A DNA stretch of 64,000 nucleotides, from contig JAZGTN010000162.1 of the NCBI GenBank assembly GCA_037783415.1, positions 558,001 through 622,000 of the forward strand, written 5' to 3'. The position numbers and the translations under genes are program-made. Shown here one piece after another: positions 1,868 to 64,000 of the stretch. Position 1 is the stretch's first letter. Each line of letters starts with the position of its first letter. Source of the DNA: Leptasterias polaris. Taxonomy: Eukaryota; Echinodermata; Asteroidea; Forcipulatida; Asteriidae. The notes below the pieces were generated by a model. The model searched no databases. It saw nothing but the letters and a program-made list of their open reading frames with translations, and was not told the origin of the DNA.

Positions 1868-2487
1868 CTCCACATTTATAACCAGGGTCCTGGTGGAATT
1901 AACAAGGAAAACCTGGTAAATTTAACCTGGAATGGTGAAATTTCAACCAGACTCTGGTGAACCAGGAAATCCTGGTGAAATTAACCAGGAAAGAGTGGTT
2001 AGTATACGGACCAGGAATCTGGTGAAATTTCAACCAGACTCTGGTTAACCAGGAAATCCTGGTGAAATTAACCAGGAAAGAGTGGTTAGTATACGGACCA
2101 GAAATCTGGTGAAACTTCAACCAGACTCTGGTTAACCAGGAAATCCTGGTGAAATTAACCAGGAAAGAGTGGTTAGTATACGGACCAGGAATCTGGTGAA
2201 ACTTCAACCAGACTCTGGTTAACCAGGAAATCCTGGTGAAATTAACCAGGAAAGAGTGGTTAGTATACGGACCAGGAATCTGGTGAAACTTCAACCAGAC
2301 TCTGGTGAAATTTAACCAGATATTTTCACCAATGTGTCCTGGTATTTTTTACCAGGATCTGGTTGACGTACATTCACCAGGAAATCCTGGTGAAATCAAC
2401 CAGGAAAGAGTGGGTGTGGTACGGACCAGGAATCTGGTGAAATTTCAACCAGACTCTGGTGAAATTTAACCAGATTTTTTTTAGAGT
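1868..2487. repeat. 87-bp minisatellite with nested short palindromes
   Basis: The AACCAGACTCTGG block recurs at 1945, 2032, 2119, 2206 and 2293 (exact 87-bp steps), with a degenerate further copy at 2447. Each unit holds facing ACCAGG and CCTGGT words such as ACCAGGAAATCCTGGT, so every unit can fold. The period is divisible by three, so a 29-residue repeat is open on the minus strand; I regard that frame as non-coding. The flank at 2480 (T-run then AGAGTGTA) resembles a transposon terminus, so the array may lie inside a non-autonomous DNA element. Confidence 0.9.
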
Positions 2488-16500: not shown

Positions 16501-17845
16501 ACGGTATTACCACAGTGAGACCAGGTAAACATCATAGTGTAACCAGAGTGTGGCCACATAGAGAACACAGTGTCACAACAGTGTGACCACATAGAGAACA
16601 CAGTATCACCACAGTGAGACCAGGTAAACATCATAGTGTAACCAGAGTGTGACCACATAGAGAACACAGTGTCACAACAGTGTGACCACATAGAGAACAC
16701 GGTATCACCACAGTGAGACCAGGTAAACATCATAGTGTAACCAGAGTGTGGCCACATAGAGAACACAGTGTCACAACAGTGTGACCACATAGAGAACACG
16801 GTATTACCACAGTGAGACCAGGTAAACATCATAGTGTAACCAGAGTGTGGCCACATAGAGAACACAGTGTCACAACAGTGTGACCACATAGAGAACACGG
16901 TATCACCACAGTGAGACCAGGTAAACATCATAGTGTAACCAGAGTGTGGCCACATAGAGAACACAGTGTCACAACAGTGTGACCACATAGAGAACACGGT
17001 ATTACCACAGTGAGACCAGGTAAACATCATAGTGTAACCAGAGTGTGGCCACATAGAGAACACAGTGTCACAACAGTGTGACCACATAGAGAACACAGTA
17101 TCACCACAGTGATACCAGGTAAACATCATAGTGTAACCAGAGTGTGACCACATAGAGAACACAGTGTCACAACAGTGTGACCACATAGAGAACACGGTAT
17201 CACCACAGTGTGACCAGGTAAACATCATAGTGTAACCAGAGTGTGGCCACATAGAGAACACAGTGTCACAACAGTGAGACCAGGTAAACATCATAGTGTA
17301 ACCAGAGTGTGGCCACATAGAGAACACAGTGTCACAACAGTGTGACCACATAGAGAACACGGTATCACCACAGCATGACCAGGTTAATATCATAGTGTCA
17401 CCCGAGTGTCCCCACAGATAAAACGCAGTGTCACCAGAGATAGATAATACAGTATCACCACAGTATGACCACAAAGAGAAAGCAGTGTCACCACAGTGTG
17501 ACCACTTAGAGAGCACAGTATCACCACAGTGTGACCATACAGAGAACACAGTGTAATCACAGTGTGACCACATAGAGAACACAGTATTACCACAGTGTGA
17601 CCACTTAAAGAACACAGTATTACCACAGTGTGACCAGGTAGACATCATAATGTCTCCACAGTGTGACCATACAGAGAACAGTGTTACCACAGTGTGACCA
17701 CATAGAGAACACAGTATCACCACAGTGTGACCAGGTAAACATCATAGTGTCACCAGAGTGAGACCAGGTAGAATCATAGTGTCCCTAATAGAGAACACAT
17801 TGTCATCAGAGTGTGACCATATAGAAATCAAAGTATCACCAGATG
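13549..17845. repeat. satellite of 33-bp monomers in 99-bp higher-order units
   Basis: Landmark AAACATCATAGTGTAACC recurs at 14481, 14580 and 14679 (99-bp steps) and so on for about 30 units. Each unit has three 33-bp monomers: two of the GTGTGACCACATAGAGAACA type and one of the GTGAGACCAGGTAAACATCA type. The edges (13549-13661 and 17390-17845) hold less ordered, more diverged monomers, as expected of an array homogenised from its centre. Excluding the inserted LTR there are about 108 monomers. Since 33 is divisible by three, a 1131-codon minus-strand frame (14328-17723) stays open. I consider it a by-product. Confidence 0.95.
13666..14408 (-). mobile_element. solo LTR inserted in the satellite
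   Basis: A 743-bp insert interrupts one monomer. It begins TGTTA and ends TAACA (5'-TG...CA-3'), and is flanked by CCAC at 13662-13665 and 14409-14412. Removing the insert and one CCAC restores the monomer exactly (GTGTGACCAC then ATAGAGAAC). On the minus strand there is a TATATAAGG box at 14218-14226, so transcription would run toward 13666. There are no internal genes. This is the expected product of recombination between the LTRs of an LTR retrotransposon; a 4-bp duplication fits Gypsy or Bel/Pao-type integration. Confidence 0.8.
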
Positions 17846-22805: not shown

Positions 22806-23917
22806 CGCATGTAGCTGGCATCGGAGGAATAGGAAATTCAAATCGGCATACAAGCTTGCCACCATTTGTGCAAGTCCACCTGTGTGTGTTTGTGTTCATG
22901 TAACTTAGAAACATTTACAAGCGCTTCATATTCAACGTGTCTTTTGCAGGTAACATTTTATGTGTCTATAAAATCTATGACATCATGACCAGCATCCTTT
23001 CCATACTGCGGAGAATCTTTGATCCAAAATAAACAATGGATATGGGGAGAGCCACGTTGCTGGAGTTCAACCCGGTAAAAAAAGTCATCAATTTTTCCAA
23101 TCGGTGCAAGAGTAGATTTTAACACAGTGTTGAAGAAAACTTGTACCCTATGATCAAATTGTCTGGCACTTAAGACAGGATCAGTTTGAATTAATTCTGA
23201 CTTTTCCTGCCAAGTCAATTTTAAGACATCTTCATCGGAGAGCATTTTTCCATTTACACTGAGGCTCAAGTTCTTTAGTGACGCTGCTCATTTTGTTTCT
23301 GCGGCAGAAAAAGATGCAACGAATGTCGGTATGCCCAACTGACGTATCATGGCGAATAGATCTTTTTGACGAGCCTGCCAATACGGTGTAGAAGTGCGTA
23401 ATGTCTTTAAAACCCGATAGCCTTGGTTGACATGAATCAAATCATCTAGAGCTCCAGATAACCAGCTGTGTAAGTTTTACTGACATATTTTGTCTTGCGT
23501 AAGACAGTCGTTGCACGATCTCTGATCTGTAAAGTTTGTAGTTTCTTCAGTTGAAAAAAATAATTTGGAACATACATTTCAAATCTTGTCTTTATTTCTT
23601 CTTTCAACTTTGCAAATTGTGCTGTATGTGAGTGGAATAGTTCGTTGTGTATTGTTAATTCTACGAATTACCACAGAAGAGACTGGGAAATGACTTTTCC
23701 TCACAATCTTTATCCAGAAAAATATTGATTGGCTGAATACCTTCTCCAGGTGCAATTTTCAATGCATGCTGTCCATCCATTGTAAAGTCATTAGGATGAA
23801 GCATAGTGTCCCTATTACCACAGAATACTGTTCTTCCATAAATACTTCAATCCAACCGTCGGTTTCTTTGTCAAGTTTTGCATCTTCATTAATTTTTTGG
23901 AATCAGACATGGATTTA
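22806..23917 (-). pseudogene. Helitron Rep (HUH) region, decayed, 3' portion
   Basis: Minus-strand fragments resemble the Helitron-like N-terminal domain. Around 23760-23700 the frame reads IAPGEGIQPINIFLDKDCEE; at 23400-23330 it reads [16 protein letters not shown]; 22958-23269 is open and includes FDHRVQVFFNTVLKSTLAP and ELQQRGSPHIHCLFW, whose HIH is the HUH metal-binding motif used in rolling-circle transposition. Past a stop at 22958, CRFEFPIPPMPATCVL continues to about 22806. Several frameshifts and stops make it non-functional. The Pif1-like helicase that should follow is absent. Confidence 0.85.
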
Positions 23918-34029: not shown

Positions 34030-35816
34030 TGATGGCCTGATGGCCTGATGGCCTGATGGCCTGATGGCCTGATGGCCTGATGGCCTGATGGCCTGATGGC
34101 CTGATGGCCTGATGGCCTGATGGCCTGATGGCCTGATGGCCTGATGGCCTGATGGCCTGATGGCCTGATGGCCTGATGGCCTGATGGCCTGATGGCCTGA
34201 TGGCCTGATGGCCTGATGGCCTGATGGCCTGATGGCCTGATGGCCTGATGGCCTGATGGCCTGATGGCCTGATGGCCTGATGGCCTGATGGCCTGATGGC
34301 CTGATGGCCTGATGGCCTGATGGCCTGATGGCCTGATGGCCTGATGGCCTGATGGCCTGATGGCCTGATGGCCTGATGGCCTGATGGCCTGATGGCCTGA
34401 TGGCCTGATGGCCTGATGGCCTGATGGCCTGATGGCCTGATGGCCTGATGGCCTGATGGCCTGATGGCCTGATGGCCTGATGGCCTGATGGCCTGATGGC
34501 CTGATGGCCTGATGGCCTGATGGCCTGATGGCCTGATGGCCTGATGGCCTGATGGCCTGATGGCCTGATGGCCTGATGGCCTGATGGCCTGATGGCCTGA
34601 TGGCCTGATGGCCTGATGGCCTGATGGCCTGATGGCCTGATGGCCTGATGGCCTGATGGCCTGATGGCCTGATGGCCTGATGGCCTGATGGCCTGATGGC
34701 CTGATGGCCTGATGGCCTGATGGCCTGATGGCCTGATGGCCTGATGGCCTGATGGCCTGATGGCCTGATGGCCTGATGGCCTGATGGCCTGATGGCCTGA
34801 TGGCCTGATGGCCTGATGGCCTGATGGCCTGATGGCCTGATGGCCTGATGGCCTGATGGCCTGATGGCCTGATGGCCTGATGGCCTGATGGCCTGATGGC
34901 CTGATGGCCTGATGGCCTGATGGCCTGATGGCCTGATGGCCTGATGGCCTGATGGCCTGATGGCCTGATGGCCTGATGGCCTGATGGCCTGATGGCCTGA
35001 TGGCCTGATGGCCTGATGGCCTGATGGCCTGATGGCCTGATGGCCTGATGGCCTGATGGCCTGATGGCCTGATGGCCTGATGGCCTGATGGCCTGATGGC
35101 CTGATGGCCTGATGGCCTGATGGCCTGATGGCCTGATGGCCTGATGGCCTGATGGCCTGATGGCCTGATGGCCTGATGGCCTGATGGCCTGATGGCCTGA
35201 TGGCCTGATGGCCTGATGGCCTGATGGCCTGATGGCCTGATGGCCTGATGGCCTGATGGCCTGATGGCCTGATGGCCTGATGGCCTGATGGCCTGATGGC
35301 CTGATGGCCTGATGGCCTGATGGCCTGATGGCCTGATGGCCTGATGGCCTGATGGCCTGATGGCCTGATGGCCTGATGGCCTGATGGCCTGATGGCCTGA
35401 TGGCCTGATGGCCTGATGGCCTGATGGCCTGATGGCCTGATGGCCTGATGGCCTGATGGCCTGATGGCCTGATGGCCTGATGGCCTGATGGCCTGATGGC
35501 CTGATGGCCTGATGGCCTGATGGCCTGATGGCCTGATGGCCTGATGGCCTGATGGCCTGATGGCCTGATGGCCTGATGGCCTGATGGCCTGATGGCCTGA
35601 TGGCCTGATGGCCTGATGGCCTGATGGCCTGATGGCCTGATGGCCTGATGGCCTGATGGCCTGATGGCCTGATGGCCTGATGGCCTGATGGCCTGATGGC
35701 CTGATGGCCTGATGGCCTGATGGCCTGATGGCCTGATGGCCTGATGGCCTGATGGCCTGATGGCCTGATGGCCTGATGGCCTGATGGCCTGATGGCCTGA
35801 TGGCCTGATGGCCTGA
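34030..35816. repeat. perfect (TGATGGCC)n array, about 223 copies
   Basis: Every line of the 1787-bp tract repeats the same 8-bp unit in phase, with no substitution visible by eye. A 607-codon minus frame (SGHQAIRP repeated) is open only because the unit lacks stop codons in that reading. GGCC in each unit gives a HaeIII-type site every 8 bp. Confidence 0.98.
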
Positions 35817-45663: not shown

Positions 45664-45932
45664 TAATAATAATATAATAATAGTGGCTTCTTATATAGCG
45701 CTCATATCCGTCACTCAGTGACGCTCAAGGCGCTTCAACAGTCAGTATTTTCCTGCAAGGTGTGGAGCTACTTTTTGAAGTATGAGACCCATTTCTTTAC
45801 ATAGCACCATGTAATGGTTTACAAGGTGCTGTGGCGCAATATGCAGCCAATCAAACCAGGAACACCGGGGCAAACCCCTTCTCTTTACGATAAGTGCACT
45901 GGGTTCTTTTACGTGCATTACACAACACACGC
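45664..45932 (-). repeat. SINE copy inside intron 2 of the mosaic gene, 5'-truncated
   Basis: It lies between exon 2 and exon 3, antisense to the gene. It matches 54514-54777 base for base as far as I can follow by eye, including the GCGCTATATAAGAAGCCACT tail and ATT repeats. The tRNA-like head is missing; similarity stops near 45932. Confidence 0.9.
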
Positions 45933-46332: not shown

Positions 46333-46803
46333 GCAAGTAGAATATTTCTTGAAGATTAATTAATCGTTCTTGACCAAATTGGGATTCAGAATGATAATGT
46401 TAAGGCAAGTGAACAAAATTATCGTTTTATGGGGGGGAAAAAAAATAAAATAAAATTTTTTGCTGAGATAGGTACAGCAATAAGCCTTTTTGGGGGGGCT
46501 ATAATTTTCAGCAACCTCAAACGGCAAATAACTCTAAACGATTTTAATTATGATAAAACTGTCTGTCTACTAGTTAACCCTTGTTTATGAAAGGAGAAGA
46601 ACTGTCAAACACTACTTGTGCCGCTCATTGTGGCTTCTTTGAGATAAAATCATACGATTTCAATACATTATTGTACGTGCCAAGGATTTGTGGCTGTTTT
46701 TGTGACTGTGCTTCCGTTTTGAATGATTTGCGAGTTGAAAGTCACCTGGATGTGACATGGATACCATTAACATTAAGAGGTACTCAACTGTTGATTCTAA
46801 CAG

Positions 46804-46985
46804 GTTCCTGGTGCGGGGAGAAATACACTAGCACTTTCATTCAAGTAGAATTCACTTACACAGTAGATACTTGCAGCCTGATCATTCAGGGCCGGTACGG
46901 ATCAGACGAACACGTGACATCTTTTAATCTGAGGTACATCGAAGGTTCTGGGGCATGGAGGTATGTGGGGAGTTATCCGTATAAG
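46804..46985 (+). CDS. PAN/Apple-discoidin mosaic gene, exon 4 (F5/8 type C middle)
   Basis: 182 bp after the acceptor CTAACAG, ending before the donor GTAATT at 46986 in phase 0. It encodes SWCGEKYTSTFIQVEF, then LIIQGRYGSDEHVTSFNLRY and WRYVGSYPYK, the middle of a discoidin domain with the conserved W, GRYG and VTSF positions. The final third of the domain, normally ending in a Cys, is not found before the repeat block that starts 51 bp later. The next exon either lies beyond 53 kb, unseen by me, or the gene is truncated. Confidence 0.75.
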
Positions 46986-47036: not shown

Positions 47037-47511
47037 AGGTGTTCGGGCACTCCGCCCGGAACACCTCTTGTTTTTGTTCCGTTTTTTGTTTTGTTTTTTT
47101 TCTTACTTTTTAGGTGTTCGGACAAAGGTCCGAAGACCTCTTCTTATTGTTCGTTTTTTTGTTTGTTAGGTGTTCGGACAAAAGTCCGAAGACCTCTTCT
47201 TATTGTTCGTTTTTTGTTTTTTTTAGGTGTTCGGAGCGGAGCATAGCTCCGAACACCTCTTCTTATTAGGTGTTCGGTCTTAGAAGACCGAACAACTCCT
47301 TGTTTTTGTTCGTTTTTCTTTTGTTTTTTTTTGGTTTTTTTTAGGTGTTCGGGCATTCAGCCCGAACAACTCTTTGTTATTGTTCGTTTTTTTTTAGGTG
47401 TTCGGGCCTTACGCCCGAACAACTCTTTGTTAGGTTTTCGGGCTTAGAAGCCCGAACAACTCTTTGTTATTGTTCGTTTTTTTTTTAGGTGTTCGGGCCT
47501 TACGGCCGAAC
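47037..47511. repeat. tandem array of nine covarying short hairpins
   Basis: Hairpins start at 47037, 47112, 47168, 47225, 47268, 47343, 47396, 47432 and 47487. Most share the outer left arm AGGTGTTCGG facing CCGAACACCT or CCGAACAACT. Inner stems differ but remain paired: GGGC with GCCC, GGAC with GTCC, GGAGC with GCTCC, GGTCTT with AAGACC, GGGCTT with AAGCCC. Several are joined by T-rich spacers with TTATTGTTCGTTTT. They lie directly upstream of the CRE-rich repeat units, whose boundary also carries this motif. Short open frames here are incidental. Confidence 0.9.
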
Positions 47512-47529
47512 AACTCTTTGTTATTGTTC

Positions 47530-49696
47530 GTTTTTGGGTTTCCTTCTTCTTTGTTTTGCTTATTCTTCTCAGTGGGCTTTGTCCGCAAGCAAACGCATAC
47601 TAGCAAATCTTTGATCAACTTGAAACTTCATGTGTAGTTAGAACATAACTAGCAGAAGCTGAGTAAGTTGTGACGTCACGATTACGTCATCGGGTGTCAA
47701 GTTACAAGCCATTTAAGTTCAAAAAGTGACCTCATACCGATGCCTGTATGTCTCTGAATATTACAGATACAGTATTCATATTTAGGCATATGATAGATAA
47801 AGACATAGGCAACATTTACAAAGTTAACGCCAAATTCACATGATCTTTACTTCCGGTCGTACCGGAAGGTCAAAGTTTGCCTTGGTGTAATTCTTCAAAA
47901 CAAAAACTTTCCCAGCAAAGATATTGATTTTTGTTTATCAGATTAACTTTAAATTTACACCATGTTAGGAACTTGATAAGACCTCCATTATGTAGTTGTG
48001 ACGTCATAATGACGCCATCAGGTGTTGAAATACAGTAAATCAAACTTTAATACTTCAACAATTCATAACTCAAGAAGTACTTAAGCTATTATAACAATCT
48101 ATACATCATCGGAGAGGTCTTGAAAAATGTAGCAAATACTACACATAAACTTATGCGGATTGTTCACGACTTCCTGTTCAAACCGGAAGTTGAAAATTTC
48201 AAAATTCATACTTTAAGAAATATTCATAGGGGGGCCTACTATTTACACCCACACTACGGACAATTTTTATATCAGATTGTAGGTCCTTAAGCCTTCTCAA
48301 ACTTTTCCACAGAGATGTTACCTTTTTGAACTTCACTTATGGTTGAAATCGGGCATACATTGACCCGCTGTCAAACCGCGGGAAAATAAACTGCACTGAG
48401 AACACACACACAATACGCGATCTAAACGGTGACCGCGGCTGCTGCATTGAATCAACCGCAAGGTTCAAAGTCCATCAAGGTTCGCGCAACCTGATGTTAG
48501 CGTTATGCTTTGTTAGTCTCTAAAACAGTCGTCCATGCAAACCTCGTTAACAATCAATGTTAGGATCTTGATAGTGTCTGCTTTCTTAGACCATATTAGG
48601 ACCTTGATCAAACCTCCATTAGGTAGTTATGACGTCATGATGACGCCATCAGGTGTCAAATTACAAGGTTTTTAAACATTAAAAAGTGTAATCTTTGAAA
48701 ATCTATATCAAATCAAGCAAAGAGACCGTCGGTTGCTTTTTGCGGGATTATATAGAGTTATTATAGGTCTTCATTTTTCAAAGTGTGCGTGACATGACAT
48801 GAAATGAACTCTACTTCCGGTCGAAACCGGAAGTGCCTTGTAGCTTAAAAGAGGCCATTTTTCAAGTTGTTTTCAATGATGTTATAATCCAGCAAGGGTC
48901 TGATTTACAAAAAATTGACCGGTGACGTCAAAACATCTCAAAGCGCCCTCTAGCGGCAGGTTATAAACATACCAAAATACACTTTTACTAGATTTCTGCG
49001 GTGAAGTTTATGACAATCGTTTCAAAATTGGTATACATAATGAACTTTATGCGGACAACATATGTGTGGTATTTCAGATTGATGACGCCATCGTGTGTCA
49101 CGTGGTAATGCCTTTAAGTTTAACTTTTTGAAACCTTGCATCTCAAAAACCAAAAATTTTACTGAGTTGAAACTTGGCATAGAGATAGACAATGATAATG
49201 ACTACGTAAATCTAAAGTTACAACATGATGACGTCATTACATTTTTTTACAAATATTTGAAATTTTGACCATTTTTTTTATTACGGGTATTTATTGACCC
49301 GCTGTCAAACCACGGAATAAACACACAATACGCGATCTAAAAAACCAGTTACCAGTTAAACGGTGAGCGAATCAACCGCAAGGTTCAAAGTCCATCAAAA
49401 ATGCTTGTGGTCTAGTCTCTGTTCAAGGTTCGCGCAACCTGCTTTTTACAATACGCTTTGTTAGTCTCTAAAACAGCCGTCCATGCAAACCTCGTTAACA
49501 ATCAAATTAATGCCAGGCTTTTGATCGTGTGCTTTTTTTTTTACTTTTGCTAAAGTGTGTAGTTTGTTACGCACCTCAAAACAGTAATAACACCAAAGTT
49601 CAACTTAATGAAATAGCTCACGCATTGACACAGTACTGACCCCCAGCGATACCCGAACACCTAGTGTTTGTTGTCACAAACACGTTAAGACTAGTT
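47530..49696 (-). repeat. CRE-rich repeat unit 1
   Basis: About 2.2 kb, non-coding. In plus coordinates it runs from CTTCTTTGTTTTGCTTATTC to the boundary CCCGAACACCTAGTGTTTG. It holds TGACGTCA at about 47674, 47999, 48629, 48922 and 49229. ACTTCCGG and CCGGAAG face each other near 47850-47872 and 48812-48830, and GCGCCCTCTAGCGGCAG lies at 48943. I give the strand as minus so that AGGTGTTCGG leads, as in the copies at 60-64 kb. Confidence 0.8.
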
Positions 49697-52110
49697 TTTT
49701 CTTCTTCATTGTTTTGCTTATTCTTCTCCCCGAGCTTTGTCCTCGAGCAAACGCATACTTGCGAACCTTTGATCAACTTGAAACTTCATGTGAAGTTATA
49801 ACATAACTAGCAGAAGCCGAGTAATTTGTGACGTCACGATTACGTCATCGGTGGCAAATTACAAGCCATTTCAGTTCAAAAAGTGACCATATGCCAACGC
49901 CTGTATGTCTCTGAATATTAAAACTACAGTATTTATATTTGGGCATATGATAGATCAAGTCACGGGCAACATTTGAAAAGTTAACGCCAAAATCGTCCGA
50001 CCTTAACTTCCGGGTCGTTACCCTAGGTCGAAGTTCGTCTTCGTTTTTTTCCTTCAAAAAACCACTTTCGAGCTTATCTACGGAATAACCCAAGATTGAG
50101 ATTGAATTGAATAATGAAACTCAACAGATAGTTGAACTATCAAGACGACACAAACCTATTTACGTCATGATGACGTCATCGGGCATCGAATTATAATAAA
50201 TCAAAGTTTAATATTTGTAAAAAGCATAACTCATGAACCATTTTTTATTATTTTTATAATCTACACATCATCGGATAGCTCATTTAAAGTTCGACCAACC
50301 CTACACAGAATTCGTACAACATTTGACCTTACTTCCGGTTCAAATCTGAAGTTGAAAATTTCAAAATATCTTATCTTATTCATATCTTTAAAACTACTAA
50401 TCATTTCAGCATAATTTTTGTATCAGGTTGTAGAAAGTTAATCCTGCTCAAACTTTTGCACAAACATGACAACATTTTGACCTTAACATCTGGTCAAAAC
50501 CGGACAATGAAGTGCACTTAGCCATTTCGTACCCCCCCCCCCCCTTACACACACACTTTAATTGACTTAGCATTATGTACATATAACGTTGAAACCGATG
50601 CAAGCAACAGTTCACGCGCTGACTGTGTGCACTGTCGTCGTCTTTCTGAGTTTGATCTGGCAGCGGGAAACAATATTTTTCAACAGCGCCCTCTTTCGTT
50701 GGATATTTATTAAATATCGCTGATAAATAAAATCTTTTTTGGGGCTTATCTACAGAATAACTCAAGATTGAAATTGAATTGAACATTGAAACTCATAAGA
50801 TAGTTGAACCTCAGTATCAATACGACACAAACTTAATGACGTCATGATGACGTCATCGGGTATCGAATTTCAAGGTTTTTAAACATTATCAATGTTAAAC
50901 TTTAAAAATCTATATCAAATCAAGATGAGGAGACCGTCGGTTGCTTTTTGTGGCTTGATATAGAGGTATTATAGGTCATCATTTTTTATTGTGTGCTTGA
51001 ATCAATTAACAAGACCTTTACTTCCGGTCGTACTGGAAGGTCAAAGTTTGCCTTTGTGTAATTCTTCAAAAATACAATACCCGGCAAAAATCTTAACTTC
51101 CGTATATCTGATCAAATTCAAATTTACACCATGTTAGGACCATGATAAAACCTCCATTAGTAGTAATGACGTCATGATAATGTCATCAGGTGTCAAATTA
51201 CAAGGTTTTTAAACATTAACAATTTTAATCTTTAAAAATCTATATCAAATCAAGACGAGGAGACCGTCGGTTACTTTTTGCGGTTTGATATAGAGGTATT
51301 ATAGGTCTTCATTTTTAGTGTGTGCGTGACATATCATGACCTCTACTTCCGGTCGAAACCGGAAGTGCCTTGTAATTTGAAAGTGGCGAATTTTTTTCAA
51401 GTTGTTTTTAACGATGTTATAATCCAGCAAGGATCTGGTTTACAAAAAGCGGACCGGTGACGTCATAACATCTGAAAAAGGCCCTCTAGCGGCAGGTTGA
51501 AAACATATCAAAAAACACTTTTACTAGATGTCTGTGGCGAAGTTTATGACAATCGTTTCAAAATTAGTAGACATAATAACCTTTATGCAGACAACATAAT
51601 GTGTGGAGTTTCAGATCGATGACGTCATCGTGTGTCACATGGTATTGCCTTTCAGTTTTACCTTTTGAAGCCTTGCATCTTAAAAAACCAAAGGTTTGAC
51701 TGAGTTAAAACTTTGCATATAGATAGACAATGATAATGACTACGTAAAACCAAATTGACATCATGATGACGTCATCACATTTCTTTTTACAAATATTTGA
51801 AATTTTGACCAATTATTACGGATATTTATTGACTGCTCATTCCATTGAATCAACCGCAAGGTTCAAAGTCCATCAAACATGCTTGTGGTCTAGTCTCTGT
51901 TCAAGGTTCGCGCAACCCGATTTTGACAAAACGCTTTGTTAGTCGTGTGCTTTTTTAAACTTTTGCTAAAGTGTGTAGTTTGTTACGCACCTCAAAACAG
52001 AATAACACCAAAGTTCAACTTAACGAAATTGCTCACGCATTGGCACAGCACTGACCCCAGCGATACCCGAACACCTAGTGTTTGTTGTCACAAACATGTT
52101 AAGGCTAGTT
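49697..52110 (-). repeat. CRE-rich repeat unit 2
   Basis: A tandem second unit of about 2.4 kb with the same start (TTGTTTTGCTTATTCTTCTC) and the same end (CCCGAACACCTAGTGTTTG at 52067). TGACGTCA lies at about 49830, 50173, 50838, 50847, 51167, 51453, 51619 and 51767. A CTCF-like word is at 51481-51495. Some internal modules are duplicated relative to unit 1, for example the GAGACCGTCGGTT block at 50931 and 51261. Confidence 0.8.
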
Positions 52111-53200
52111 TTATTTGTTTTTCTTCTTTGTTTTGCGTATTCTTGCAAATCTTTGGTCAACTTGAAACTTCATGTGAAGTTAGAACAGAACTAGCAGAAG
52201 CTGAGTAATGTGTGACGTTACGATTACGTCATCGGGTGTCAAATTAAATACCATTTAAGTTTGAAAAGTGACCTCGTGCCAATGCCTGTATGTCTCTGAA
52301 TATTAAAGCTACAGTAATAATAGTTGGGCATAATTATGATAGATCAAGACACGGGCAACATTTGAAAAGTTCACGTCAAATTCACATGACCTTTACTTCC
52401 GGTCGTAACGAAAGGTCAAAGTTTGCCTGGCGTAATTCTTCAAAAAAAACACTTTCACGGCAAAAACATTAACTTCTGTTTATCAAATCAACTTTAAATT
52501 TACACCATGTTAGGACCTTGATAAAACCTCCATCAAGTTGTTGTGACGTCATGATGACGTCATCAGGTGTTGAAATACAGTAAATCAAAGTTTAATACTT
52601 CAACAATTCATAACTCAAGAAGTACATAAGCTATTATAACAATCTATACATAATCGGAGAGGTATACCGTTTAAATACCGTTTGAACTCGACTTCCTGTT
52701 CAAAGCGGAAGTTTAAAATTTCAAAATTCATACTTTAAGAAATATTCATAGGGGGGCCTACGTTTTACACACACACTACGGAATTTTTTTTTTAAATCAG
52801 ATTGTAGGTCCTTAAGCCTTCTCAAATTTTTCCACAGAGATTTTTGAGTTTGTTCGCCAACCTCAAAAATACACGCATCGATGGCCGCAGACTTTGACAT
52901 CTTTCCTAAACTCGCAGAGTCATGAAACTTGGCAACAACATTATACCCGATGAAAAGATGAAACAGAAGTTTGGACAACATAATGACGCCACCAAATGAT
53001 TTATTGGGTAATTAAATGTAATCAATTTTAATCGAATTTAGAGTTTTTGGTTTATCAACCAGAACTCACAAACTAAAAACGATAAATTCGTTGTTATTTC
53101 TTGATAACAAAGGGTATTGAATACTTATCGTTTCGTACATTGGAACAAATCAAGTTTGACAAAGGTTTCATCTTAAGCCCAAGCCGTATAGTATTGAAGG
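52111..53200 (-). repeat. CRE-rich repeat unit 3, partial
   Basis: It starts like units 1 and 2 and holds a TGACGTCATGATGACGTCAT pair at 52543. From about 52830 it switches to a module whose inverted copy lies at 60290-60660 (TTTTTGAGTTTGTTCGCC at 52841, inverted near 60635). The CTCF-like module is missing. Confidence 0.75.
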
Positions 53201-54350: not shown

Positions 54351-54777
54351 GAGCCGTGGCCGAGCGGATAAGAGCACCGGACTTAAGCTCTGGTGTTTCC
54401 AGTGTTCAGCAGAGTGTGGGTTCGAGTCCCGGTCGTGACACTTGTGTCCTTATTAAGCAAGACACTTAACCATTATTGCTTCGTCCTTCGGATGGGACGT
54501 AAAGCCGTTGGTCCCGTGTGTTGTGTAATGCACGTAAAAGAACCCAGTGCACTTATCGTAAAGAGAAGGGGTTTGCCCCGGTGTTCCTGGTTTGATTGGC
54601 TGCATATTGCGCCACAGCACCTTGTAAACCATTACATGGTGCTATGTAAAGAAATGGGTCTCATACTTCAAAAAGTAGCTCCACACCTTGCAGGAAAATA
54701 CTGACTGTTGAAGCGCCTTGAGCGTCACTGAGTGACGGATATGAGCGCTATATAAGAAGCCACTATTATTATTATTA
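54351..54777 (+). mobile_element. full-length tRNA-Leu-derived SINE
   Basis: The head has a Pol III A box (TGGCCGAGCGG at 54357-54367) and a B box (GGGTTCGAGTCC at 54418-54429). The arm GGACTTAAGCTCTGG is like tRNA-Leu (UAA). The body holds a conserved central block, and the tail GCGCTATATAAGAAGCCACT with (ATT)n matches L2-type LINE ends, implying mobilisation by an L2-like LINE. The first and last bases of the head do not pair, so it is not a tRNA gene. The near-identical partner at 45.7 kb shows recent activity. Confidence 0.88.
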
Positions 54778-56577: not shown

Positions 56578-58188
56578 TATAACTAGACTTAACGTGTTTG
56601 TGACAACAAACACTAGGTGTTCGGGTATCGCTGGTGGGCTCACTGCTGTTTTAATGCGTAAGCTATATCATTGAATCGCTGAAAACAATCCTGATAGCTT
56701 TTGAAATATTAGAGAAAGTAAAGTATAAATAGGTTACACAAGAAATAAAGGGCTGCTAAAAATTTTATAAATTTTATAAATAACAACCTTTTGTTTAGCC
56801 AAATTTGAAAACCTATGACATCATTATGAAGTTAGAAAGTTTTTAGCGAGACATAGGCATTTAAATATGTGCCTAGTGGAAAACAAAGATAAACTTAGAA
56901 AGTAAGTTTATTTATTTTTCGATGGTTATCGATTTTGTATTGATAAAAAACCACACTATACATGTTGACATTATTAGGTTACAATTCAGAAAAGTTTTTA
57001 ACAGGGTTTCAAATCCAATGAGGTGGATACTCGGTTCAGGAAACATTGATTGTTCAATACAAAAACACTGATGATGATGTCGCTAAAATAAGTCAAGCAA
57101 GTTCTGAGCTAGCAGTTGTATTATTTAAAAAGCTTAATTTGCTTGATTTTTGGATATTGATTTTCCTACAGAACAGTTTGTTAATTTTTAGACTATTGAA
57201 AGGGCACTTGTTTTAAATCATAAAGCAAAACGAAGGCAAATCATGAAGACGGCAAATCTAAGCCTCTCTTGAATTTTGACTTATAACATAATGATTTATA
57301 AGTTCTATTTCTACCTGTATGGTGCATCATACAGGAAATGAGGAATGCAACACAACAACACGTGGAAAATCTGTCACTGGATCCAAGACCATGCCGGTGG
57401 ATGTGCTGTATTCTGAAGAAGAAAAAAACAATATTACAAAATAAACAAAGTATGACTCTAGGAAAATTGAGTCAAGCTGAAACTGTTAAAATAAACAAAA
57501 ATCAAGACTTAAAACGTTTCATATTTATATAATACTACTACTAATTTATTTAATTTATATTGCGCTCTCTCAATGACCAACCTGTTCAAAGGGGGTGGGG
57601 GTCAAAACAGTAACAACATTCAAACTTAGGAAATTGCACAAGAAAAGGTTAGTGGAAGGTGCACATATTGTTTTGGAAGTGAACAACTTATAAACAAAAC
57701 CTACTTTACTTAACACAAACGTCATCAAAGTTGCCGACAAACATTCTTCAGTCGGACCATTTTCTGACTTTAGTGACACAGCCAACAATCATACCAATCC
57801 CCCATTGCCCAATTCTACTCCTCGACGATCACACTAAACGTTCTTTAGTTTTAAAAACATCACCAACGCCACCACTTGATAATTAAAGATAAACTTTATA
57901 ACATAACTGTGCATTAAATAAATACTCATTTTGAAAAGCAATGATTTTCACACAAAGCTTACCGTTTTATCACCGTGTGGCACCGATATAGCATCGATAA
58001 ACACTGCCGTGGACGCCGTCCGAAACACCCATTCATGAGCTGATGTCAAGTCTCTGCTTCTCGGTGTTTGATAAACACATAACCAATGTTCGTCTTTTTC
58101 TGCTTGCATTTTCTCAAACAATTACAAGTCATACGAATCACTGAAGTAGGTGGTCATCTCAGTGAAACTTCGTCTTCAATTCCATATT
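56578..58188 (+). repeat. repeat unit with AGGTGTTCGGG boundary, copy 1
   Basis: It begins ACTAGACTTAACGTGTTTGT, then GACAACAAACACTAGGTGTT, and continues GTATCGCTGG, the same boundary as the CRE-rich units at 49.7 and 52.1 kb but in the opposite orientation. It is tandem with the next unit (period about 1.61 kb). The interior is CRE-poor and non-coding. Confidence 0.75.
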
Positions 58189-59580
58189 GATCACTAGACT
58201 TAACGTGTTTGTGACAACAAACACTAGGTGTTCGGGTATCGCTGGTGGGCTCACTGCTGTTTTAATGCGTAAGCTATATCATTGAATCGCTGAAAACAAT
58301 CCTGATAGCTTTTGAAATATTAGAGAAAGTAAAGTAGAAATAGGTTACACAAGAAATAAAAGCTACTCTCAAGATATGAAATTTTATAAATAACAAACTT
58401 TTGTTTAGCCAGATTTGAAAACTGATGACATCATTATGAAGTTACAAATGTTTTTATCGAGACATAGATATTTAAATATGTGCCAAGTGAAAAACAAAGA
58501 TTAACTTTTTTTTTAAAATCAGCGAAAGAGTACATTATTTAAATTATTTGAAAGGGCAAAAGGTCCATTGTCATTTCATAGTCATACAGCAGAGGAACAT
58601 TTTCCCCCTTCCCCTTGGCAGCAGATGTTGAAACGATCCTTTGAATGACCCACACGTTCAACTAAATATGCCATTCACTGAAGTTTATTTATTTGTCAAT
58701 GGATATCGATTCTTTTTTGATTAAAAAACCACATTAGATGATATTCATGTTGTTATTATTAAGTTACAATTCTGAAACTTTTTACAGTGAGTTGGATACT
58801 CATTAAGTATCGGTGCATGAATCATTAATTGTTCGAAACATATATGCACTGATGAAGATGTCATTAAAATTAGTCAAGTATTATGAGCTATCGGTTGCAT
58901 GTTTTAAATTAGCTTGTTTGATTTTTAGACATTGATTTTCGTACAGAACGGTTTGTTAAATTTAGAATATTAAAATGAAAGACACTTGTTTAGGATAAGT
59001 ATGCAAGACAAAGGCAAAGCATGAGGACGGCAAGTCTAAGCATCTCGTGAATTTATACTAATAACATAATGAGTTAAGTACTATTTTTAGGAAAACCTCC
59101 ATCGAAGGGTCTTTAAATATGCATGTCATAATAAAAAAGTTTACGAAAAACATTTATTAGTCGAACCATTCTCTGACTATAGTGACACAGCCAACAACCA
59201 TACCAATCCCCCATTGCCTAATTCTACCTCTGCGACGATCATACTAAATGCTTCTTAGTTTTAAAAACATCTCACCAACGTCACAACTTGATGATACAGG
59301 ATAAACTTTATAACATAATTGTGCATTAAATAAAATGATGTTCATACGAAACGTACCGTTTCTAGTCACCGTGCAGGGACGATAAAGACTACCGTGTGTG
59401 AGGGTCTGAAACACCCTACACAAACCGATGACGCGTCCCTTCTTCTCGGTGTGTGATCAAAACACAACCAATGTCCGTCTTTTTCTGCTTACATTTTCTT
59501 ACATAATTAAAAGTCATACGAATCACTGAGGTAGGTGGCCATCTCAGCGAAACTTCGTCTTTAATTCCATTTGATCATTA
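58189..59580 (+). repeat. repeat unit with AGGTGTTCGGG boundary, copy 2
   Basis: The first ~180 bp are almost identical to copy 1 and the rest is clearly alignable. AGTGACACAGCCAACAA at about 59181 matches 57772, and CTTTATAACATAA occurs near both ends. Non-coding. Confidence 0.75.
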
Positions 59581-59912
59581 AGCCATGAGAAGGGCGAAAA
59601 GGGGAACAATTAGACGCCGAATCTGAGTGGAATTCAGATCTGTAATGTTACTATTGTTAGTACGCCATTGATAAGATTGCTCTACGTTGTAAGTGCGTTG
59701 ACCGGTGGCGTGTCAAAACATGAATGAAACTCACGCCACAACACATAGACTTCAGCGAAGGCGCTCACGGCAAACAATACGCGGTTGCGGTTACTTTCGT
59801 CTGATTTCGTGCCGATTGTTAATCGCCTCCCCTAACAAGCGTCTTGACTGGCAAACTACCCACCGTTGCGCAATGCAATCAGTCGCGAGGAGGTATGCCA
59901 TGCTGCGTTAGG
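59581..59912. other. GC-richer non-coding stretch
   Basis: A 68-codon frame from 59705 is basic and unrecognised. No repeat match was found. Confidence 0.3.
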
Positions 59913-60279
59913 CAATAAGCCATTTGCGAGTTACATTTGAATAATGTCTGGTACAATGACTTGTTTAGTCACAAGTTACCGCTTAAATTTGAATTCCTCA
60001 GACTATAGAGACAGTTGCTATGTCACATGCTTCGGGGCAAGCTTTTGTATAGCAACCTCCAGATGAGCAAACCCTGGTACCATTGTGCCATACACATCCA
60101 TTCAGAATTGTGTATGGGTGTTCACCGTCTCTTACGTAACTAAGCAAAAGCTTGCCCCTAATCATGTGACATAGCAACTGTCTCTATAGTCTGAGGAATT
60201 CAAATTTAAGCGGTAACTTGTGACTAAACAAGTCATTGTACCAGACATTATTCAAATGAAACTCGCAAATGGCTTATTG
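59913..60279. mobile_element. foldback element with 135-bp near-perfect inverted arms
   Basis: Left arm 59913-60047 begins CAATAAGCCATTTGCGAG; right arm 60145-60279 ends CTCGCAAATGGCTTATTG. The arms differ at only a few positions by eye. The ~97-bp centre is unique and non-coding. No clear target duplication was found. It fits a MITE or foldback transposon. Confidence 0.9.
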
Positions 60280-60660
60280 ATTAAGATTTAAACGTTTTAA
60301 AAGGCCAAATTCTCTCAGAAATCTTTGTCTAACTTGATTCGTTCCAAAGTATGAAACGAAAAGTATTCAATACCCTTTCTTTTCAAGAAATAACAACGAT
60401 TTTATCGTTCTTATTTTGTGAGTTCTGGTTGTTAAACCAAAAACTCAAAATTTGATTAAATAAATTACATTTAATTACCCAATAACTCATTGGGTGACGT
60501 CATTATGTTGTCAAAATTTATGTTTTATCTAATCATCAGGTGTAATATTGTTGCCAGGTTTTATGACCGTGCGAGTTTGGGAAATATGTCAAAGTCTGCG
60601 GACAACGATGCGTGTATTTTTGAGGGGGCGAACAAACTCAAAAATCCACTAGAGATTTAG
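60280..60660 (+). repeat. inverted copy of the 52.83-53.16 kb module
   Basis: Reverse-complement landmarks are CGAAAAGTATTCAATACCC, ACCAAAAACTCAAA, AATTACCCAATAA, TGTCAAAGTCTGCGG and GCGAACAAACTCAAAAATCC. It includes one CRE at 60497. Confidence 0.75.
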
Positions 60661-62223
60661 TGTTTGTGAGAACAAACACTAGGTGTTCGGGTATGGGGCA
60701 CTGTTATGTTACTAAAATGCGTAAGCAGATTTATATTGAACGTTTTTTAATAATAAAAAAAAAGTCGTTTGCAAACCTATTACTTTTATACTTTTAGTGT
60801 ACACGGGGGAAAGTGATATCGTTGCTGTATGAGTCTCCATAAAGTAGTTTAGATACACATGTATAACAATTTTCATGTAAATAGTCACAAACTTAACAAG
60901 CTTAACTGATAAATTAAAAGACTATCACTAACAATTCAAAAATTAATGTTATCAAACTACGCATGCTTGCTATCTTATGTGTGAAGCAACATAATTTGTC
61001 ATGATTATGAAAAGGGCATAAGAACCTACTGTTTACACGATGTGCAATTTATGTTGAATTTATTTTGCTAGTCACATTGTATTTCTTTGAAGTATTCAAC
61101 AGGATCTAATAGTTAGATTCGCATAAAAACCGTTGTTGATCAGAGTCAAATTTATGTTGACCTTTTTCCGATTGCATTTTCTCAGTTATCAAAAGTTATT
61201 CAAATCACCAAAACAGTTCAGCAAAATACACTCGTTCAGTTGATATTTACCACCAAGCCAACAAAAGGCTAACACGAAGGTTAGGCAATGAGCTATTCAT
61301 TGGACCACCGTCGAACATCGTAGATTTCCGAAGGATGGTTGCATTTATCGACGAGTGCAGTAACAAAGGACCATTAACTTGGTATAGCGCCACCATGGAT
61401 AACGTATCACGACACAGCAATGCAGTCTTCGTGGACTTTGCACCAAGGATCAATGGCGCAGTGTGTGTACCGTTTACATGTACATGCAAGCTTACGCGTG
61501 GTCAATGGAGCAGAATGACCAGCCCTGCGGGCTAATACTAACGTAATGTTCAACTTACATTTACAGCGGGAAGTCAAGAACAACCGGGATAACTCTTTGT
61601 GTAGCATTTGTTGAGTTTTAAAAGACCTGTCCGATGATGTATTGATTGAAGCAATCCATTCAGTAATGATTAAGTTATGATTTTTTGAAATATTAAATTT
61701 TGATTTACTGTATTTCAACACCTGATGACGTAATCATGACGTCACAACAACTTGATGGAGGTTTCATCAAGGTTCTAACATGGTGTAAATTTGAGGTTGA
61801 TCGGATAAACAGAAGTGAAGAATTTGGGCAGGAAATGTTTTTGGGTTAAGAATTGCAGAAAGGCAAACTTTGACCTTCCGGTACGACCGGAAGTAAAGGT
61901 CATGTGAATTTGGCGTTAACTTTTCAAATGTTGCCCGTGTCTTGATCTATCATAATGTTTAAATATGAATATTATAGCTTTCCTATTCAGAAACATACAG
62001 GCATTGGCATGAGGGCACTTTTTGACCTTAAATGGCTTGTAATTTGACACCCGATGACGTCATCATGACGTCATTGCTCACACACCTTCTGCTCATTATG
62101 TTCTAATGTCACATTAAGTTTCAAGTTGATCAAAGGTTTGCAAGTATGTTTTTTTTGGCGGACAAACGACTATCAGAAGAATAAGCAAAACTAAATATAA
62201 TTTTTGGTTGGAAACAAAAAAAG
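60661..62223 (+). repeat. CRE-type repeat unit, inverted orientation
   Basis: It opens with GTGAGAACAAACACTAGGTG and TTCGGGTATGGGGC. Bases 60720-61700 are not matched elsewhere in the window. From 61700 to 62190 it is the reverse complement of 47540-48020 (CREs at 61736, 62054 and 62066; the ETS-like pair CCGGTACGACCGGAAGT at 61878). Frames at 61247-61721 are unrecognised. Confidence 0.7.
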
Positions 62224-63374
62224 AGGTGTTCGGTGTGACATCGTGTTTCAAAGAAATGTTATAAACATGTCTGTGTATTAAATATTGTATACTTCTATAG
62301 AGTCTTTAGAATGGTGGTTCTAAATATTTGACCAAACTTTTTGGATGTAACACATCCCAGCTTGAGTACATGCAAAGTTTCCATTTGATCACCAAAGTTG
62401 TTCTGTACATATAGATCTTGTAAAACACTACCTTGGTGGTGACATAACATGAAAATCGATGACGTCGTGAAAACGTCACTCCACGTTATATCCTTGTACG
62501 ACCTTCCAAGTCTCATGCAAAATGAAATTTGACTATAGCTTGCTTGTACTGAAGATATGTACCAATTGGTCAAAATTTCTAAAATTTGTAAAAAACAATT
62601 TGATGACGTCATCAAGTCGTCACTCTAGCTTTAAGTAGTCAATATAACTGTCTATCAACATGCCAAGTTTCAACTCAGTCAAACTTGTGGTTTTGTAGAT
62701 ACACAGCTTCAAAAAGTAAACCTTTAATGCGATACCACGCGACACATGATGACGTCATCAATCTAAAAATTCACACATATGTTGTCTGCAAGAAGGTCAT
62801 TATGTATACCAATTTTGAAACGATTATCATAAACTTCGCCACAGACATCTAGTAAAAGTGTATTTTTAATTGTTTTCAATCTGCCGCTAGAGGGCGCTCT
62901 TGACTTTTATGACGTCACTTGTCTTATTTTTTGTTAACCAGACTCTTGCTCGACTATAACACCGTTAAAAAAAACTTCAAAAAGTGTGCCACTTTTAAAT
63001 TACAAGGCACTTCCTGTTTCTTCCTGTTTCGACCGGAAGTAGAGGTCAAGTCATGTCACGCACACAATAAAAAATGAAGACCCATATTACCTCTATATAA
63101 TCCCGCAAAAAGTAACCGACGGTCTCTTCATCTTGATTTGATATGGATTTTCAAAGATTAAATTGTTTAATTGTAAAACCCTTGTAACTTGACACCTGAT
63201 GACGTCATCATGACGTAAATGAAACGGTTTCGTCTCCTAATGGTTATCTAACTATGGTAGAAATTTCAAGTTTATACGAGCTTGGGAAGTGTGCTTTTGT
63301 TAGCGGACAAGCGGCGAAGAGAAGAAGAATCTGAAGAAGTAACTAGAAATAATTTTTTGTTGGAAACAAAAAAG
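62224..63374 (+). repeat. CRE-rich repeat unit with CTCF-like word, 1151 bp
   Basis: It starts AGGTGTTCGGTGTGAC. CREs lie at 62613, 62751, 62909 and 63201. A CTCF-like word (CCGCTAGAGGGCGC) is at 62883-62896 and a CCGGAAGT at about 63033. The order of modules mirrors 48.6-49.3 kb in reverse complement. Non-coding; the 106-codon minus frame at 62295-62615 is incidental. Confidence 0.8.
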
Positions 63375-64000
63375 AGGTGTTCGGTGTGACCTCGTGTTTC
63401 AAAGAAATGTTATAAACATGTCTGTGTATTAAATATTGTATACTTCTATAGAGTCTTTAGAATGGTGGTTCTAAAGATTTGACCAAACTTTTTGGATGTA
63501 ACACATCCCAGCTTGAGTACATGCAAAGTTTCCATTTGATCACCAAAGTTGTTCTGTACATATAGATCTTGTAAAACACTACCTTGGTGGTGACATAACA
63601 TGAAAATCGATGACGTCGTGAAAACGTCACTCCACGTTATATCCTTGTAGGACCTTCCAAGTCTCATGCAAAATGAAATTTGACTATAGCTTGCTTTGTA
63701 CTGAAGATATGTACCAATTGGTCAAAATTTCTAAAATTTGTTTTAAAAAAATTGATGACGTCATCAAGTCGTCACTCTAGCTTTAAGTAGTCAATATAAC
63801 TGTCTATCAACATGCCAAGTTTCAACTCAGTCAAACTTGTGGTTTTGTAGATACACAGCTTCAAAAATTAAACCTTTAATGCGATACCACGTGACACATG
63901 ATGACGTCATCAATCTAAAAATTCACACATATGTTGTCTGCAAGAAGGTCATTATGTATACCAATTTTGAAACGATTATCATAAACTTCGCCACAGACAT
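63375..64000 (+). repeat. second, almost identical copy of the 1151-bp unit, cut by the window end
   Basis: It repeats 62224 onward with very few differences over the visible ~626 bp (for example ACATCG versus ACCTCG near the start). The high identity indicates a very recent tandem duplication or an assembly effect. Confidence 0.9.

What the first reader, a model, noticed from the sequence alone, without database searches (positions are those of the whole stretch)
47037..47511. Nine tandem hairpins with a conserved outer stem and covarying inner stems
The array keeps pairing while sequence changes: inner stems are GGGC/GCCC, GGAC/GTCC, GGAGC/GCTCC, GGTCTT/AAGACC and GGGCTT/AAGCCC inside a common AGGTGTTCGG arm. 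Compensatory changes across tandem copies imply selection on, or a copying mechanism acting through, the folded form as DNA or RNA. The same motif marks the boundaries of the CRE-rich repeat units, so the array may be a pile-up of element ends. I know of no described system that matches; this is the best candidate for something new in the window.
Basis: partly seen in the sequence, partly recalled or inferred. Interest (0 to 1): 0.82.

Follow-up and report, generated by a model that had tools for sequence, protein, structure and literature searches.

The report
Pile-up of nested transposon left ends
The nine hairpins are left ends of rolling-circle transposons (Helitrons) that appear to have inserted into one another's leaders in a sea-star-like genome, so a puzzling array is best read as a record of repeated insertions at one spot and not as a new kind of structure.

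Summary
Confirmed: nine hairpins, 47037-47515, far beyond chance. Not a new system: each is the 5'-terminal hairpin of a non-autonomous Helitron of Helitron2/Helentron (HINE) structure, TT + repeat AGGTGTTCGG + its complement. The matching 3' repeat CCGAACACCT lies 42-43 nt before the YTAG end of 7 of 7 elements in the window. The host genome (nearest named protein relatives: a sea star) holds 11,835 AGGTGTTCGG, reversed control 745. In a sample with 37 hairpin groups (75 hairpins), 21 groups are single and the window's nine is the largest. Five of its nine hairpins occur letter for letter elsewhere, eight within one base. L136 has an uninterrupted leader; in L133 and L163 a related leader is split by TTAGG...CTAG between T and T, and the window's hairpin 1 is cut at the same place. 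So the array is best read as left ends piled up by nested insertion. Stems covary between hairpin types, but only in inner pairs 10-12. Open: nine left ends, only two complete right ends; bodies were lost or some hairpins were duplicated locally.

The parts
47037..47066 (+). Hairpin 1: left-end repeat + complement; its leader (to 47111) is cut at CTTACTTT|TT
   Evidence: exact same hairpin in L136 and twice in L143, where the two copies share their 5' flank; uninterrupted leader in L136
47112..47139 (+). Hairpin 2 (left end, one base from hairpin 3)
47168..47195 (+). Hairpin 3 (left end; exact copy is the only hairpin found in L148)
47225..47258 (+). Hairpin 4 (left end, the only one with the ten outer pairs all formed without a bulge; exact copy in L144)
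47268..47297 (+). Hairpin 5 (left end; no exact or one-base copy elsewhere in the sample)
47343..47371 (+). Hairpin 6 (left end; exact copy in L159)
47396..47424 (+). Hairpin 7 (left end; exact copies in L138, L140, L146)
47432..47461 (+). Hairpin 8 (left end; one base from the only hairpin found in L150)
47487..47515 (+). Hairpin 9 (left end; one base from hairpin 7); nearest to body U1, so read as U1's own 5' end (inference)
47516..47600 (+). T-rich leader of U1; of the CRE-rich units that start inside the window, the only one not preceded directly by another unit's CTAG/TTTAG
47531..49694 (+). U1, CRE-rich element body (start approximate)
49653..49694 (+). U1 3' end: repeat CCGAACACCT, hairpin GTGTTTGTTGTCACAAACAC, CTAG
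49695..52108 (+). U2, second body; starts inside the leader right after U1's CTAG; 3' end 52067-52108
52109..52838 (+). U3, third body, lacks its 3' end
52839..53169 (+). Piece of another element (V type), 88% like 60318-60646 on the minus strand
63343..64000 (-). Minus-strand cluster, first body in the window (W), 3' end at 63343-63384; its left-end hairpins lie outside the window in L165
62191..63342 (-). X1 body, 3' end TTTAG
60649..62190 (-). X2 body, 3' end CTAG
58194..59590 (-). B body, 3' end CTAG (5' boundary approximate; no left hairpin seen there)
56583..58193 (-). A body, 3' end CTAG

Best explanation
The array is a stack of nine 5' (left) ends of non-autonomous rolling-circle transposons of the Helitron2/Helentron (HINE) structural type. 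Each left end is TT + inverted repeat AGGTGTTCGG + short loop + its complement (the hairpin), then a T-rich leader, the body, and a right end made of CCGAACACCT, a second hairpin and CTAG. New elements insert between T and T in the T-rich leader of an element already there. The older hairpin stays outside and the older body is pushed to the right, so left ends pile up on one side and bodies with CTAG ends on the other. Shown: the hairpins are dispersed left ends with matching right ends downstream in many loci, and two loci carry an insertion in a leader whose uninterrupted relative exists elsewhere. Inferred: that all nine hairpins arrived this way, that bodies were later lost, and that the hairpin and its alternative pairing with the 3' repeat act in transposition. 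Inner-stem covariation most likely reflects upkeep of the 5' hairpin in mobile source elements; the left arm is fixed because it must also match the 3' repeat.
For: Right ends: 7 of 7 exact CCGAACACCT outside the array are 42-43 nt before YTAG|T. In 306,939 bases (window included) 49 of 77 solitary motifs with up to one mismatch have CTAG 30-55 nt away, 45 of them at 41-44; one of these ends is counted twice because L165 overlaps the window. Left ends: 75 distinct hairpins, 72 preceded by TT, in 37 groups of size 1 (21), 2 (8), 3 (3), 4 (2), 5, 7 and 9. 22 of 37 groups have a same-strand CTAG end downstream in the stretch; six of them at 1131-1140 nt, with 1 (L135, L156+), 2 (L156-, L163-, L165-) or 4 (L134) hairpins. 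Dispersal: 11,835 against 745 for the reversed pattern. Same hairpins elsewhere: 5 of 9 exact, 8 of 9 within one base. Empty-site comparison: L136 has an uninterrupted leader; in L133 and L163 a related leader is split by TTAGG...CTAG; the remainder TTAATACTTC follows a CTAG three times (L133 once, L163 twice), after two kinds of right end; window hairpin 1 is cut at the same CTTACTTT|TT. 22 of 51 CTAG ends are followed by a 30-mer of at least 80% pyrimidine (18) or by a hairpin within 16 nt (4); random T-starting 30-mers are that pyrimidine-rich in 68 of 5201. In 22 runs chosen, one-hairpin runs have one right end in 7 of 8 and larger runs have two or more in 10 of 14, Fisher p 0.024, Spearman 0.46.
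Against: Nine left ends but only two complete right ends (plus truncated pieces) follow in the window. The leader remainder expected for hairpin 1 is not found after a CTAG in the window or its fetched right flank. 15 of 37 groups show no right end in the stretch, some with 6.7-8 kb of it (L165+, L147). 28 of 77 solitary motifs lack a CTAG in range. Hairpins within a group are on average more alike than between groups (8.1 against 9.8, 0 of 2000 permutations); L130 and L155 are three identical hairpins each and L140 four near-identical ones. L136 and the split leaders belong to related, not identical, hairpin types. No autonomous element with these ends was found: flanks of one RepHel locus lacked the motif. 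Units A and B show no left hairpin at their 5' start.
Confidence: 0.85

Rival explanations
1. Local tandem duplication: one element's left end was multiplied in place by slippage or unequal exchange in the T-rich leader, then diverged. It may act beside nesting.
For: TRF finds periods of 36-91 nt in the array; hairpins 2/3 and 7/9 differ by one base; within-group similarity exceeds between-group; L130 and L155 hold three identical hairpins each; too few right ends in the window.
Against: Eight of nine window hairpins recur within one base, several types as the only hairpin found at another locus; neighbours in the window are no more alike than in random order (7166 of 20000 permutations as low); the split leader needs insertion.
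Confidence: 0.3
2. Rolling-circle concatemers: read-through of the 3' terminator produced head-to-tail copies, and truncated rounds left repeated left ends.
For: Tandem Helitron arrays are described as rolling-circle products (passages in PMC8268682; PMC5876387). Units here are head to tail; W and X1 are 97.7% alike over 659 nt.
Against: In a concatemer every CTAG would join the true 5' hairpin; only 4 of 51 do so within 16 nt. Units start near positions 7 (U2), 2 (U3) and 24 (X2) of U1's leader (from the pairwise matches). U1/U2 segments are 73-95% identical.
Confidence: 0.1
3. Compensatory stem changes were made by hairpin-templated replication (template switching) and not by selection.
For: The mechanism can make instantaneous compensatory changes (passages of PMC8794818). 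On 30 of 44 scored edges of a minimum spanning tree only 1 both-sided paired change was seen against 19 one-sided ones. Hairpins 5 and 8 differ at pair 11 on both sides.
Against: Outer mismatches at pairs 3 and 5 persist in 15 and 13 of 45 types.
Confidence: 0.3
4. A structured RNA or a chain of terminators transcribed from the host gene's intron.
For: Hairpins followed by T runs; the array lies 51 nt after a splice donor that I read from the sequence of a PAN / F5-8C gene.
Against: No Rfam family reaches its gathering score; the same hairpins are dispersed transposon ends.
Confidence: 0.03

Closest known systems
Helitron2 (Bao and Jurka 2013, PMC3627910; passages seen)
   Same: 5' repeat 0-2 bp from the 5' end forming a 5' hairpin with downstream bases; matching 3' repeat just upstream of the 3' hairpin; 5' T; compensatory changes between two related elements
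   Different: Here the left hairpin is stacked up to nine times; 3' end is CTAG as in canonical Helitrons; the 3' repeat ends 32-33 nt from the terminus against about 20-30
HINE / Helentron non-autonomous elements (PMC4067079; oyster Cg_HINE, PMC7492417; passages seen)
   Same: subTIR of about 10-12 bp plus complementary IR after a short spacer on the left; subTIR plus palindrome on the right; T-rich, TT target; no coding
   Different: CTAG terminus, as in the proto-Helentron of Phytophthora (5'TT and 3'CTAG) and in oyster elements of mixed features (PMC7992393)
Nested or tandem Helitrons (Fusarium and Metarhizium, PMC5148889; plant centromeres, as cited in PMC8268682; passages seen)
   Different: In the passages seen: single cases or truncated tandem copies; here a recurrent insertion point in the leader and a tally of left hairpins

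Membership tests
Helitron2/Helentron (HINE) | Left inverted repeat within 0-4 nt of the 5' end, forming a hairpin with its complement | tested here: met
   75 hairpins, 72 preceded by TT; boundary from one leader site, two loci
Helitron2/Helentron (HINE) | Matching 3' repeat upstream of a 3' hairpin | tested here: met
   7 of 7 in window, one hairpin imperfect by eye; 49 of 77 solitary motifs in sample have CTAG in range
Helitron2/Helentron (HINE) | Insertion in TT without target duplication | tested here: met
   One leader site only: L136 uninterrupted, L133 and L163 split, related types; not tested in unique host DNA
Helitron2/Helentron (HINE) | RepHel-encoding partner with the same ends | tested here: inconclusive
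   73 Helitron_like_N matches in the genome; flanks of one examined, no shared repeat, one CTAG end with another repeat
Helitron1 (canonical) | 5' TC end | tested here: not met
   Left ends read TTAGG in 9 of 9 in the window and are preceded by TT in 72 of 75
Helitron1 (canonical) | 3' CTRR with a hairpin about 10-12 nt upstream, followed by T | tested here: met
   CTAG in 6 of 7 window ends (TTTAG in one), all followed by T; 47 of 51 ends in the sample followed by T
Known structured RNA (Rfam) | Covariance-model score at gathering level | tested here: not met
   0 matches; best sub-threshold match 27.5 against 80 bits

The most novel reading that the evidence does not exclude
The T-rich leader right after the left hairpin is a dedicated landing pad: these elements preferentially insert into each other's leaders at fixed T-T positions, perhaps because the single-stranded left hairpin or bound Rep marks it. 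Arrays of left hairpins would then be a readable log of insertion order at safe sites.
Probability: 0.3. Interest if true: 0.6.

Novelty: new variant of a known kind. Interest (0 to 1): 0.42.

Why it matters
It turns an apparently unknown structured array into a possible record of Helitron insertions: one-sided left ends with typed hairpins could give their order, and the many copies in one genome make target choice and 5'-hairpin evolution in rolling-circle transposons testable. It also warns that covariation in tandem hairpins need not mean an RNA gene.

Tried and rejected
Rfam at low threshold gave only matches below the gathering score, the best to bacterial RNAs, judged chance. Exact patterns of the CRE core, the A-type end and the array tail found nothing in viral contigs, the A-type end nothing in genome contigs. 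Protein searches with exon 46587-46985 and with an array reading frame found nothing. I first took the array for right ends because its right arms resemble the B-type end; dropped. Pure concatemers were disfavoured on junction positions. Neighbour similarity in the window was uninformative, as two tails are short. A script crashed on sorting (counts printed before the crash are used) and was mended and rerun. Rows dropped: for the run test, 11 stretches with hairpins but no right end after them, and three hairpin groups (2821000 minus, first of 2667000, first of 6520500), were left out, and several kept runs are cut by the end of the stretch; of the 51 ends at least one (L159) lies inside an array. 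Hairpins were sought with at most one mismatch in the left arm and at least 8 of 10 outer pairs, so mutated ones are missed (78 with two mismatches). In one search the register of most bulged types was not corrected, which lowers pairing at pairs 9-12, and 14 of 44 tree edges were not scored.

Full report
Observation. The array is real. Nine hairpins run from 47037 to 47515; perfect 7-nt-arm hairpins number 9 against a shuffle mean of 0.30 and maximum 3 of 500, and each folds as DNA better than all 200 shuffles. All nine are preceded by TT. Left arms are AGGTGTTCGG in 8 of 9; right arms are CCGAACACCT in 1 of 9. On the nine, 1 of 11 pairs changes on both sides, 2 change only by breaking, 8 never vary. 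Column shuffles reach the observed covariation score in 11 of 500 and the percentage paired in 39 of 500.

Surroundings. The window is from an animal: LINE-like reading frames with reverse transcriptase and endonuclease and, left of the array, exons of a PAN / F5-8C-like gene. The PAN frame's named relatives are lactadherin-like and neuropilin-1-like proteins of Asterias rubens, a sea star. The frame just left of the array had no database hit and no Pfam match, but matches the second of these proteins pairwise, E 8e-11; that match ends at 46973. To the right lie head-to-tail units with CRE motifs. No closed reading frame of 120 aa or more lies beyond 47246. Outside the array exact AGGTGTTCGG or its complement occurs 7 times, each time as CCGAACACCT 42-43 nt before a YTAG followed by T, with a palindrome between (imperfect in the copy at 62233). 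This is the layout of a Helitron right end.

Identification. Passages of three papers describe the matching left end: Helitron2 with a 5' repeat at the terminus that folds with downstream bases and a 3' repeat just upstream of the 3' hairpin, with compensatory changes between two related elements (PMC3627910); oyster HINEs with an 11-12 bp subTIR, a 7-12 bp complementary IR after 1-12 bp, and a right subTIR followed by a palindrome (PMC7492417); mite and mosquito elements with T-rich targets and Ts at the ends (PMC4067079). The array arms are the inverted repeat of the right-end motif over 10-12 nt; TAGGTGTTCGGG is expected 0.001 times per strand and is found at 4 hairpins and 5 right ends.

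Genome test. The own genome (629.7 Mb, 334 contigs) answered for the motif: 6045 + 5790 copies against 353 + 392 for the reversed pattern. I fetched stretches around all the places that one search lists (about the first hundred, on C1 and C2) and around the window. In 306,939 bases, window included and 2 kb of it counted twice through L165, there are 75 distinct hairpins (orientation ambiguous in 2), 72 preceded by TT, in 37 groups: 21 single, 8 double, 3 triple, 2 of four, and one each of 5, 7 and 9; the window's is the largest. 22 of 37 have a same-strand CTAG end downstream in the stretch, 15 do not, some with 6.7-8 kb to spare. The sample is biased to places with an exact left arm and, for hairpins, to at least 8 of 10 outer pairs, so the constancy of left arms in it is partly built in; the window's own nine were not chosen that way.

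Pile-up. Hairpins 1, 3, 4, 6 and 7 of the window have exact copies at other loci; 2, 8 and 9 are one base from another known type; 5 has neither. Several are the only hairpin found at their locus (L136, L148, L138, the two L143 copies, which share their flank; L150 for hairpin 8 with one base different). L136 carries the same hairpin as window hairpin 1 with an uninterrupted leader ...CTTACTTTTTAATACTTC. In L133 and L163, whose outer hairpins are of a related type, the leader is split...CTTACTTT, then TTAGG..., and TTAATACTTC after a CTAG. The right end before TTAATACTTC is of one kind in L133 and in one place of L163 and of another kind in the second place of L163. So an element beginning TT and ending CTAG sits between T and T without duplication. 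Window hairpin 1 is followed by hairpin 2 at the same point. Bodies U2, U3 and X2 begin right after a CTAG or TTTAG at about positions 7, 2 and 24 of U1's leader (pairwise matches; the multiple alignment misplaces U3). 22 of 51 CTAG ends lead into a pyrimidine-rich stretch or the next hairpin. In most same-strand runs left ends come first and right ends follow, as nesting predicts; in 22 runs that I kept, single-hairpin runs have one right end in 7 of 8, larger ones two or more in 10 of 14, p 0.024.

What does not fit. The window array has nine left ends and two complete right ends; the leader remainder of hairpin 1 was not found after a CTAG in the window or its fetched flank. Within-group hairpins are more alike than between groups, and some groups are copies of one unit. 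I hold nesting as the main process and allow local duplication and loss of bodies by recombination between neighbouring bodies (inference).

Covariation. On 45 distinct hairpins, pair 11 is paired in 40 with all four orders, pair 12 in 36, pair 10 in 44, each above the maximum of 1000 shuffles; pairs 3 and 5 are unpaired in 15 and 13, and pairs 3, 5 and 9 gain nothing over shuffles. Along 30 scored tree edges (14 not scored) one both-sided paired change was seen against 19 one-sided ones. So stems are kept between types, presumably in mobile source copies, and decay in place. As two separate strands, the left arm pairs about as well with the A-type 3' repeat as with its own partner: better in 7 of 9, equal in one, worse in hairpin 4 (for hairpin 9, -16.6 against -12.9 kcal/mol); with the B-type repeat it is better in only 4 of 9 (hairpins 2, 3, 5 and 9). 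This would suit the switch proposed by Bao and Jurka, an inference here. Template switching remains a rival cause (PMC8794818).

Autonomous source. The genome holds at least 73 Helitron_like_N matches, many in long open frames, none in 14 control genomes, and one degenerate piece lies in this window. I looked at flanks of one locus only; they lack the repeat but show a CTAG end of the same layout with another repeat. The link between these elements and a helper is not shown.

In print. The listings of searches (titles and starts of abstracts) show no report of stacked Helitron left hairpins; only open-licence papers are searched, and of the papers cited I saw passages, none whole. Nested or adjacent Helitrons as such are reported.

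Noticed in passing
window 23030-23500, minus strand: Degenerate Helitron_like_N (Rep) fragment with two in-frame stops, E 2.7e-19; no AGGTGTTCGG-type motif with up to one mismatch left of the array.
   Followed up: no
window 34030-35816: Perfect 8-bp repeat TGATGGCC, 223 copies, open as a 607-aa frame on the minus strand.
   Followed up: no
window 1933-2474: Minisatellites with palindromic pieces (ACCAGAATCTGGT type), periods 87 and 22.
   Followed up: no
window 14408-17766: 99-bp repeat, 34 copies, with 33-bp and 22-bp substructure, open frame of 1131 aa on the minus strand.
   Followed up: no
window 45670-45931 and 54515-54777: Inverted copies of 263 bp, 99.6% alike, on either side of the array, probably a recent duplication.
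   Followed up: no
window 59908-60284: Fold-back with 145-nt arms, 95% complementary, 87 nt apart.
   Followed up: partly
window 47067-47535: 7 of 9 array tails carry TTGTTCG or TTGTTCCG, which can pair with the right arm in five of them (read by eye); hairpin 1 has the extra base on both sides. Role unexplained.
   Followed up: partly
L170 about 244-285 of the minus strand: Helitron right end of the same layout with a different repeat (CCGGAACAGCTTC), some 11 kb from a RepHel domain match.
   Followed up: no
L165, about 522-713 bases beyond the window's right end: Left-end hairpins of the minus-strand cluster whose bodies fill the right side of the window.
   Followed up: partly
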